From assembly GCA_945888525.1 (NCBI GenBank), contig CAMDAF010000020.1, positions 1 through 43,382 on the forward strand: a DNA stretch of 43,382 nt, in the 5' to 3' direction. A program made the translations under genes and the position numbers. Positions within the stretch are counted from its first letter, which is position 1. Each line of letters begins with the position of its first letter. Below, in pieces: positions 37,960 through 40,303 of this stretch. This DNA comes from Chitinophaga pinensis (GTDB lineage Bacteria; Bacteroidota; Bacteroidia; NS11-12g; UBA955). Below the pieces are notes generated by a model. That model did no database searches and was not told the DNA's origin. It saw nothing but the letters and a program-made list of their open reading frames with translations.

Positions 37960-38115
37960 GGGTATTAAAGGCACATACTTATATATTTGTGACCCAGAAT
38001 TGAGAGCCTATTTTTCAAACTTTATAGAAACAGAGTAATATAGGAAATCTTTATTTCGCATTGGCTTTAACTCGCGGAACATTAATTTTCTCCCGAAATC
38101 AATAAACACACAACA

Positions 38116-39087
38116 ATGTCACTACTCAATTTCGTCAAAAACAAAATGCGCATGTCACATGTGTACCAGCCGGTGATGATAAAAGCCTTATTGGAGAATG
38201 AAGGCAAACAAACCGTGCAGGGCATTGCGGAACAATTGTTAAAATACGACTAGTCGCAGATAGAATACTACATAGATGTAACCAAAAACATGGTTGGCAA
38301 AGTATTGCTGAGTCATGATATTGTAGACAAAGAAAAAGATATTTATATCTTAAAGGAATATTCAAAGTTAAATTCTCAAGAGAAGAAAGAAATCATTGAA
38401 GAATGCAACCGTAAAATTGATGAGTACATCAGCAAAAGAGGCATAAGCATTTGGCAGCATAGAAGAAGAAACAGAAGACCTGTACCCGGTAGTATTCGCT
38501 ATGAAGTTTTGAAGCGGGCCAAATACCGATGTGAATTGTGCGGCATATCAGCAGAAGAGAAGGCCTTGGAGGTCGACCACATCACACCTAAAAACCATGG
38601 AGGTGAAGATTCTATCAACAATTACCAGGCATTGTGTTACACCTGCAATGCTCAAAAGAAAGATTTAGACGACACAAGTTTTAGAGAGCAAGAAGCGGTA
38701 TACCATGTTAGAGAAAAAGAATGTGTTTTTTGTGAATTAGAAAACAGAAAAATGGTTTATGAAAACAATTTAGCCATGGCATTTTACGACCTCTACCCTG
38801 TTACTCAATACCATCTTCTAATCATTCCAAAACGTCATGCAATAAATTATTTCGCACTCAATCAAGCAGAAATAAATGCGATGAATCAAATAATCTTTCA
38901 AGCCCAAAAAGACCTAGTAAACAAAGACAGTAGCATTGAAGGGTTCAACATTGGCATCAACAATGGCAGTGTGGCTGGACAAACAATTTTCCATTGCCAT
39001 ATACATTTAATTCCAAGACGTAGGGGTGATGTTGCAAACCCGATTGGTGGGGTAAGGAATATTATTCCTGGGAAGGGTGAGTATTAG
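38116..39087 (+). pseudogene. HNH-HIT fusion protein gene with in-frame amber at codon 46
   Basis: From ATG 38116 one frame runs 323 codons to 39087, interrupted only by TAG at 38251-38253 (codon 46). Around it the text YD-stop-SQIEYY continues family sequence on both sides, so CAG to TAG (Gln lost) is the simplest cause. Domains: a helical N-terminal module (MRMSHVYQPVMIKALL at 11-26), an HNH nuclease (CELCG, EVDHITPKNHGG, LCYTCNAQKKD) and a C-terminal HIT domain with FHCHIHLIPRR. HNH enzymes cut nucleic acid; HIT domains hydrolyse or transfer nucleotides. TAG ends aroA and ricT in this window, so amber is a true stop here. Internal restart at ATG 38290 would still make a 265-residue HNH-HIT protein. 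Confidence 0.82.
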
Positions 39088-39109: not shown

Positions 39110-39427
39110 TCAAATATCTAATCTCGAATGGGTATCATGCTGCTTATCATGACAAGGTCCACACACAGATACCAGCCAATGGATAGGTTCTTTACCGATA
39201 TTGTATTTTGCGTATTTTAAATGGTGCACTTGGGTGGCTTTCGCGCCACAATATTTGCATTTCCAATTGTCTCTTCTTAAAACCACAAACCGCTTGCGTT
39301 GCCATGCATCCGATTTAAGATAATCGTTTCGGTAATAATCGCGTCTGCTTTTACGCTTAATTTCAAACAGCATTCCTTTTATGATACCACCAGAAATTAA
39401 AACGATTAAAACAATTATTATTTCCAT
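39110..39427 (-). CDS. Small HNH-type protein with N-terminal membrane segment
   Basis: A 105-residue protein. Residues 1-20 are a single hydrophobic helix (MEIIIVLIVLISGGIIKGML); then a basic stretch (KRKSRRDYYRNDYLKSDAWQ) and a compact HNH-like zinc fold: CKYCG, VHHLKYAKY and CGPCHDKQH. The HH pair and four Cys match the HNH (McrA-like) nuclease core. A membrane-tethered HNH protein is uncommon, so either the helix anchors it or the true start is downstream, although no good internal ATG is seen. It is convergent with the HNH-HIT gene, 22 nt apart. Role unknown. Confidence 0.65.
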   Translation of the reverse strand: MEIIIVLIVLISGGIIKGMLFEIKRKSRRDYYRNDYLKSDAWQRKRFVVLRRDNWKCKYCGAKATQVHHLKYAKYNIGKEPIHWLVSVCGPCHDKQHDTHSRLDI

Positions 39428-39971: not shown

Positions 39972-39981
39972 ACCTTTTAAG

Positions 39982-40055
39982 TGATCCCGAAGGGATTCGA
40001 ACCCCTGACCCACAGATTAGAAATCTGTTGCTCTATCCAACTGAGCTACGAGACC
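39982..40055 (-). tRNA. tRNA-Arg (anticodon UCU)
   Basis: Minus-strand cloverleaf of 74 nt: acceptor GGTCTCG pairs with CGGGATC (with G-U pairs), D-arm GCTCAGTTGGATAGAGC, anticodon arm CAGA-TTTCTAA-TCTG with anticodon TCT, T-arm AGGGGTTCGAATCCCT, discriminator A at 39982. The 3' CCA is not encoded. Confidence 0.96.
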
Positions 40056-40059
40056 ATAT

Positions 40060-40109
40060 AAAAAAAAAGGCAGTTACAGTTGAGGATAAATCTTACACTG
40101 TCAACTGCC
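40060..40109 (-). terminator. Terminator-like hairpin between tRNA-Pro and tRNA-Arg
   Basis: GGCAGTT-ACAGT (40069-40080) pairs with ACTGT-C-AACTGCC (40097-40109) with one bulged base; the A-run at 40060-40068 gives a T-run on the minus strand. It should end the tRNA-Pro transcript, yet its T-run stops 5 nt before tRNA-Arg, so tRNA-Arg would depend on readthrough or on a promoter inside this hairpin region. Confidence 0.7.
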
Positions 40110-40118
40110 ATCTTCGGT

Positions 40119-40170
40119 CGGGGTGGCAGGATTGGCTTCGCCTTTCACCGCTCCCCTTCAGCTCGAACCT
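40119..40170 (-). pseudogene. tRNA-Pro 3' fragment split by a 30-nt insertion
   Basis: The 15 nt at 40119-40133 and 7 nt at 40164-40170 equal the contiguous 22 nt at 40231-40252, the acceptor and T-arm 3' part of tRNA-Pro. Thirty nucleotides starting GGCTTCGCC separate the halves. TCTTCG precedes both copies. It cannot fold into a tRNA and looks like a duplicated, then interrupted, tRNA end. Confidence 0.7.
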
Positions 40171-40229
40171 AAAACCTTATTAAGGTAGTATGTTTTTGCT
40201 TTGACTCTGATTTAAACTTTTCTTCGATG

Positions 40230-40303
40230 TCGGGGTGGCAGGATTCGAACCTACGACCTTCTGCTCCCAAAGCAGACGCGATACCGGGCTACGCTACACC
40301 CCG
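40230..40303 (-). tRNA. tRNA-Pro (anticodon UGG)
   Basis: Minus-strand cloverleaf of 74 nt: acceptor CGGGGTG / CACCCCG (seven Watson-Crick pairs), anticodon arm TCTGC-TTTGGGA-GCAGA with anticodon TGG, T-arm with GGTTCGAATCC, discriminator A at 40230. The 3' CCA is not encoded. Confidence 0.97.

What the first reader, a model, noticed from the sequence alone, without database searches (positions are those of the whole stretch)
38116..39087. HNH-HIT fusion gene interrupted by a single amber codon
Seen: one 323-codon frame with a lone TAG at codon 46 and family-like sequence on both sides. TAG is a genuine stop for aroA and ricT in this window, which argues against recoding. HNH nuclease and HIT nucleotide-hydrolase domains in one protein suggest a nucleic-acid processing or defence role (inference). 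A C-to-T change from CAG is the simplest cause. Restart at 38290 could leave both catalytic domains expressed but strip the N-terminal module.
Basis: partly seen in the sequence, partly recalled or inferred. Interest (0 to 1): 0.5.

Follow-up and report, generated by a model that had tools for sequence, protein, structure and literature searches.

The report
Broken mobile HNH-HIT nuclease gene
A bacterial gene that joins a DNA-cutting domain to a nucleotide-handling domain is cut short here by a real stop signal; intact relatives are scattered across unrelated bacteria, some beside anti-virus genes, so this copy is most likely a recently inactivated one, while the family itself looks like an unstudied defence nuclease.

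Summary
Frame 38116-39087 (323 codons) has one internal stop, TAG at codon 46, with family sequence on both sides. Relatives carry the same N-terminal module; none starts at the 38290 equivalent. TAG ends 6 of 28 window ORFs, including this gene at its conserved C-terminus, and no suppressor tRNA was found. So the copy is most likely a young pseudogene. Two details of the reading fail: the codon-46 column is variable (Gln in 9 of 54 rows), and Met 38290 lies inside a predicted winged-helix-like domain, which a restart would split. Eight of 57 copies are broken or rearranged, one by TAG two codons later. The family is patchy across phyla; some loci lie beside Cas9, Mokosh, AIPR, type IV restriction or recombinase genes. 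New here: the nearest stand-alone HIT genes sit beside an HNH gene in 13 of 43 loci, in both orders, so HIT and HNH form a recurrent pair, fused or split. I infer a solitary DNA-cutting defence enzyme. The interrupted copy is ordinary; the HIT-HNH pairing is the interesting part.

The parts
38116..39087 (+). wHTH-HNH-HIT gene, interrupted; codon 1 to terminal TAG
38251..38253 (+). in-frame TAG at codon 46, at the first residue of the predicted last long helix of the N-terminal domain
   Evidence: position on the model
38116..38352 (+). N-terminal winged-helix-like domain (codons 1-79), split by the TAG
   Evidence: homologues; secondary structure of the L001 homologue model; solved-structure matches are weak
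38290..38292 (+). Met codon 59, invariant in the family (53 of 53 rows); a possible but unsupported restart, inside that helix
38530..38664 (+). HNH nuclease domain (CELCG, LEVDHI, LCYTCN)
   Evidence: (PF01844)
38746..39024 (+). HIT domain by Pfam range; closest solved folds are FHIT and HIT-family hydrolases
38992..39006 (+). histidine triad H-C-H-I-H
   Evidence: sequence, alignment
37982..37989 (+). TATATTTG, match to the Bacteroidetes -7 box TAnnTTTG (motif recalled); candidate promoter

Best explanation
The window holds a recently inactivated copy of a horizontally moving single-gene nuclease: winged-helix-like DNA-binding domain + HNH nuclease + FHIT-type HIT domain. Shown: the architecture, a true stop at codon 46, intact relatives, patchy spread, defence and mobile neighbours in several loci, and a recurrent HIT-HNH partnership. 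Inferred: in intact copies the N-terminal domain docks on invading DNA and HNH nicks or cuts it. The HIT domain then acts on a nucleotide linked to the attack. I think the likeliest substrate is AMP, either on adenylated 5' ends that DNA ligase makes at the cut (so the cut cannot be resealed) or in a dinucleotide signal. In this genome the TAG stops translation after 45 residues, so the protein is most likely absent.
For: Same-frame homology on both sides of the TAG. TAG ends 6 of 28 window ORFs that I took as genes, among them this gene at the family's conserved C-terminus. 32 tRNA matches in the genome and no CTA anticodon. Intact relatives from Bacteroidota, Pseudomonadota, Acidobacteriota, Fidelibacterota and others; the HIT tree mixes phyla. 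Full-length copies in 6 of 108 genomes of the order, the window's own included, and in none of the 16 other genomes of the genus. Neighbours include two Cas9 (L004, L103), Mokosh MkoC (L020, 1253.8 bits), AIPR (L214), type IV restriction helicases (L003, L212), GmrSD_C (L014), MrcB_N-HNH 2.5 kb away (L032), HNH_2 nucleases, C5 methylases and recombinases. HIT beside HNH in 13 of 43 stand-alone loci, and in 2 of 3 loci found by searching with the HNH partner alone.
Against: No activity, phage test or expression data. The neighbour picks were made by hand, and the control set (stand-alone HIT neighbours) also holds defence genes, so no clean enrichment figure exists. Of 10 neighbours hand-picked for a PADLOC scan, 4 had no match, and many loci have ordinary neighbours (transporters, symporters, GlmS-like). 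No defence gene other than a weak HNH ORF was identified beside the window copy, but its neighbours were only partly annotated. The winged-helix reading has no significant Foldseek match (best E 0.71; VIA-align Z at most 3.3). The AMP/ligase step is not tested anywhere.
Confidence: 0.62

Rival explanations
1. The truncation is tolerated: translation restarts at Met 38290 and makes an HNH-HIT protein that still works, so breaks upstream of that Met are selectively mild.
For: Met 59/60 is invariant in 53 of 53 rows. Four of eight broken or rearranged copies (of 57 inspected) break between about codons 37 and 55, just upstream of it. A uniform model gives 4 within 18 codons with probability 0.034 for eight lesions and 0.009 for six.
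Against: No homologue begins there; only 5 of 53 rows have a Shine-Dalgarno-like word before the Met; the Met is inside a helix of the N-terminal domain; the test was made after seeing the data; another Met column (12) is equally invariant.
Confidence: 0.17
2. Assembly or sequencing error at 38251: the organism has an intact gene.
For: The assembly has 63 contigs, reads are not available, and the rest of the frame is intact.
Against: A second genome of the same family has its own, different TAG two codons further on (L086), and other relatives are broken by an insertion or a frameshift, so broken copies recur in the family. This is indirect: errors in those assemblies cannot be excluded either.
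Confidence: 0.1
3. TAG is read through or recoded (programmed amber).
For: Two genomes of one family carry TAG in nearly the same place; two random nonsense codons fall within two codons of each other with probability 0.015.
Against: No CTA tRNA; TAG is used as an ordinary stop, including at this gene's own end; the two TAGs are at different columns, and the homologue rows otherwise have sense codons at both.
Confidence: 0.03
4. The family is not defence but a homing or repair nuclease of mobile elements.
Against: I saw no shared insertion site, though I did not search for one systematically; several relatives lie beside different defence genes; the HIT partner is unusual for homing enzymes (recalled).
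Confidence: 0.25

Closest known systems
HNH restriction-type nucleases (McrA/ScoMcrA-like, IscB/Cas9 HNH)
   Same: Same HNH core; PDB profile hits to Cas9, IscB and McrA chains; weak IscB and phosphorothioate-REase NCBIfam hits.
   Different: Pfam shows no further nuclease or base-recognition domain in the protein; a HIT domain follows instead; the NCBIfam hits lie under their cut-offs.
HIT family, FHIT / Ap3A-Ap4A hydrolase and Hint branch
   Same: HIT fold and histidine triad; best Foldseek hits are NitFhit and FHIT.
   Different: Fused to HNH and an N-terminal DNA-binding-like domain; substrate unknown.
ThsC of Thoeris type II (PADLOC naming)
   Same: A HIT protein in a defence system (PMC8565338, passages seen); the PADLOC ThsC profile matches the HIT part at 47.7 bits.
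   Different: ThsC is an additional, separate gene of Thoeris systems; here HIT is joined to, or paired with, HNH.
Septu PtuB HNH protein
   Same: Weak PADLOC PtuB hits in the HNH of both the fusion and the split partner.
   Different: No PtuA among the 25 of 159 PADLOC families shown for the neighbours; HIT takes the partner place.

Membership tests
HNH endonuclease (PF01844) | Profile score over the curated cut-off, with Cys pairs and DH core | tested here: met
   48.8 vs 21.4 bits; C140, C143, D155, H156, N170, C175, C178, N179 invariant in 33 rows
HIT (PF01230) | Profile score over the cut-off and HxHxH motif | tested here: met
   73 vs 21.5 bits; H294, H296, H298 invariant in 33 rows
HinT / IscB / phosphorothioate REase (NCBIfam) | Score over the curated cut-off | tested here: not met
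   73.7 of 130, 51.3 of 175, 25.3 of 180 bits
Thoeris type II (ThsC) | HIT gene beside ThsA and ThsB | tested here: inconclusive
   Only 25 of 159 PADLOC families matched by 91 neighbours were shown, and none was ThsA or ThsB
Modification-dependent (type IV) restriction | Cleavage of modified DNA only | not testable with these tools
   needs biochemistry
Anti-phage defence system | Protection in a phage assay | not testable with these tools
   only neighbourhood evidence
Amber-recoded gene | Suppressor tRNA with CTA anticodon | tested here: not met
   32 tRNA matches, none CTA; only 150 of 237 first-look candidates were scored, so a diverged tRNA could be missed
Winged-helix DNA-binding domain | Three helices plus beta wing, and a significant structural match | tested here: inconclusive
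   Predicted elements fit, pLDDT 94; Foldseek best E 0.71, VIA Z at most 3.3

The most novel reading that the evidence does not exclude
HIT and HNH form an undescribed defence pair that occurs as a two-gene operon in either gene order and, separately, as a single wHTH-HNH-HIT protein with a diverged HNH. HNH nicks foreign DNA, and HIT strips AMP from ligase-adenylated 5' ends so the nicks stay open.
Probability: 0.3. Interest if true: 0.68.

Novelty: new variant of a known kind. Interest (0 to 1): 0.4.

Why it matters
The interrupted copy itself is ordinary decay. The family matters because a nucleotide-processing HIT domain is tied to a DNA-cutting HNH domain in two ways (fusion and adjacent genes), which is a strong hint of a shared task. 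If it protects against phage, it would be a small one-gene or two-gene system with a new use of the HIT fold, and a lead to why HIT genes occur in other defence systems.

Tried and rejected
Amber recoding: no CTA tRNA; TAG used as a normal stop. Conserved internal start at 38290: no homologue starts there, few SD-like words. Gln at codon 46: not supported by the column. Excess decay of this family: 8 of 57 copies broken or rearranged (about 0.14 per kb, my arithmetic), against 2 of 43 stand-alone HIT genes (L053 with a stop, L073 partial; about 0.13 per kb; L075 is cut by its contig end), so no excess shown. Accelerated change before the stop in G046: Ka 0.152 for codons 1-60 against 0.143 for the rest, synonymous sites saturated, so no conclusion. 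N-terminal module shared with the split HNH partner: profile comparison gives probability 0.3%; only the HNH cores align. Module shared with other viral proteins: 13 viral-contig loci found, each on a contig already found with the full family profile. Defence enrichment against stand-alone HIT neighbours: 159 PADLOC families matched among 91 neighbours against 39 among 71 control neighbours, but these are families, not proteins, and the control is not neutral, because those HIT genes are themselves often paired with HNH and some lie by restriction genes. Full-length copies in reference phages or plasmids: no record covers 80% of the query. Literature: PMC searches listed no paper whose title or start of abstract describes an HNH-HIT fusion or pair; only part of the matching papers was listed (20 of 244, 2 of 3, 15 of 117, 3 of 4); only passages of PMC8565338 were read; most subscription papers are not held.

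Full report
What is there. Window 38116-39087 is one frame of 323 codons plus a terminal TAG, with a single internal stop, TAG at codon 46. A profile of intact relatives matches 38113-39084 in one piece with '1 TAG' inside (E 6.3e-158). The 265 codons from 38290 hold HNH (48.8 bits) and HIT (73 bits) domains over Pfam's cut-offs. The window is contig C20 of a 2.42 Mb, 63-contig genome estimated 98% complete.

Is the stop real? The genome gives 32 tRNA matches (150 of 237 first-look candidates scored), and ARAGORN on their loci finds no CTA anticodon. I conclude that TAG stops translation here. Raw reads could not be seen.

Full length is ancestral. I inspected 57 copies: L001-L037, L083, L085, L086, 14 of the 16 full-length viral-contig loci (L098 and L105 repeat L018 and L027), L172, L232 and the window. 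Some are close relatives of each other (up to 97-99.8% in DNA), so they are not independent. Wherever the N-terminus lies within the contig, the module 'L..FI...MRMSHIYQPVML..LL..GG....IAKALL..D.SQIEYY...TKNMVGKVL' is present, apart from rearranged copies. At the window's codon 46, 54 rows (two of them duplicates) hold R, Q, E, T, L, I, V, P, A or F; Gln occurs in 9. The original residue therefore cannot be read from relatives.

Other broken copies. G046, of the same family but another genus, has its own TAG two codons later, at a column that is Gln in the 53 other rows. Palleronia (L018) is split near codon 38 by an insertion of about 1.4 kb with 19-bp inverted repeats and a transposase-like frame (transposase and IS256 type are recalled). 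L101 is frameshifted by one base in a run of A near codon 54, while a 99.8% identical sister copy, L097, is intact. Four more are altered elsewhere: L033 (unrelated sequence upstream, near the contig end), L035 (different N-terminus), L036 (HNH missing), L037 (frameshift in HIT). That is 8 of 57. Four of the 8 lie within about codons 37-55; uniform placement gives this with probability 0.034 (0.009 if only six lesions are counted), a test made after seeing the data. Stand-alone HIT genes show 2 broken or partial of 43, a similar rate per base.

The N-terminal domain and the restart. AlphaFold2 on 33 relatives (first row L001) gives mean pLDDT 83; the N-terminal 84 residues alone give 94, with helices 2-11, 19-28, 35-45 and 47-67 and strands 71-74 and 77-80. 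This is the order of a winged helix, but no solved structure matches well (Foldseek best E 0.71, a winged-helix protein; VIA-align Z at most 3.3). Window codon n is L001 residue n+1, so the TAG lies at the first residue of the last long helix and Met 38290 inside it. A restart there would not strip a clean module. Only 5 of 53 rows have a Shine-Dalgarno-like word before this Met; Bacteroidetes often lack such words (recalled), so this counts mostly for the other phyla.

Spread and setting. Full-length copies occur in 6 of 108 genomes of the order including the window's, with none in the 16 other genomes of the genus, in 3 of 395 sampled genomes of the class and 3 of 395 of the phylum, the window's own counted in both. 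The HIT tree (95 rows; rows with a stop or a short match left out; 122 columns, weakly resolved) mixes Bacteroidota, Pseudomonadota, Acidobacteriota and others, and the fused HITs do not form one group (4 changes). No neighbour is conserved across the loci; the commonest shared neighbour clusters span 4 loci. Of 91 neighbour proteins picked by hand (90 of the 290 ORFs listed, mostly within 700 bp, some nearer ORFs left out, plus one from the window), matches include recombinases, type III/IV restriction helicases, C5 methylases, Cas9 in two loci, AIPR, a Schlafen-type helicase, GmrSD_C and Mokosh MkoC at 1253.8 bits; an MrcB_N-HNH gene lies 2.5 kb from the L032 copy. Ordinary genes were also found (PTR2 and SSF transporters, a SIS-domain protein that I take for GlmS, DXP reductoisomerase), and 4 of 10 neighbours picked for PADLOC had no match. 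The family lists show 25 of 81 and 25 of 159 families. No enrichment figure can be given, and beside the window copy itself only a weak HNH ORF was seen.

The pairing found in the control. As a control I took neighbours of stand-alone HIT genes (71 of 73 listed). Several turned out to be an HNH protein of about 335-350 residues: 12 of 43 loci (L038-L080) by tblastn, the query's own locus included, 2 of them at only about 30% identity, and a thirteenth, L040, by Pfam. Gene order is HNH-HIT in L061, L064 and L069 and HIT-HNH in the other ten. The genes overlap or lie within about 20 bp, except L043, where the ORF begins about 250 bp away (the L042 start is uncertain and the L053 copy is broken by two in-frame TGA). 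Searching 295 genomes of the class with the HNH partner alone gave 3 matches; 2 have a HIT gene within about 60 bp downstream, and the third is a truncated copy with no HIT in the 3.4 kb fetched. The partner's HNH core aligns with that of the fusion (profile comparison E 1.2e-5, probability 81%), but its N-terminus does not. So the tie between HIT and HNH exists in two forms. This is the strongest evidence that the two domains act together.

Mechanism. Shown: architecture, true stop, homology, patchy transfer, recurrent pairing. Inferred from the setting: anti-invader nuclease. Inferred from domain knowledge only: HIT enzymes act on AMP linked to a phosphate or an amine (recalled), so the HIT part may remove AMP from ligase-adenylated ends at HNH cuts, or clear a nucleotide signal, in the way proposed for ThsC (PMC8565338, passages seen). 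The window copy should be null, since only 45 residues precede the stop.

Verdict. The finding is a genuine nonsense allele of a family for which I found no description. As an interrupted gene it is ordinary; as a pointer to the HIT-HNH partnership it is worth a bench test.

Noticed in passing
L039:4001-5371, L045:4001-5401, L061:1273-2659, L064:2991-4375: Stand-alone HIT genes sit beside an HNH gene of about 335-350 aa in 13 of 43 loci, in both gene orders; the three partners scanned have only weak PADLOC hits (PtuB, PDC-M01B, Cas9).
   Followed up: partly
L053:4001-5380: HIT gene with an in-frame stop and partner HNH gene with two in-frame TGA: a decayed copy of the split pair in a gammaproteobacterial MAG.
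   Followed up: partly
L036:200-844: A copy in a MAG labelled Nitrosarchaeum lacks the HNH domain in frame while the N-terminal module and HIT remain.
   Followed up: no
L035:3497-4669: HNH-HIT part joined in frame to a primase-like (D5-type, recalled) sequence in place of the N-terminal module; real chimera or assembly join unknown.
   Followed up: no
L009:3821-6628, L007:3821-8419: In SAR86 genomes the gene lies by a GlmS-like gene (name recalled), the region where Tn7-like elements insert (recalled).
   Followed up: no
window 39110-39427 (-): A short stand-alone HNH-like ORF (19.6 bits, just under the Pfam cut-off of 21.4) faces the interrupted gene; tRNA-Arg and tRNA-Pro follow at 39981-40303.
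   Followed up: partly
L097 and L101: Two near-identical copies on contigs named after one IMG genome, one frameshifted in a run of A.
   Followed up: partly
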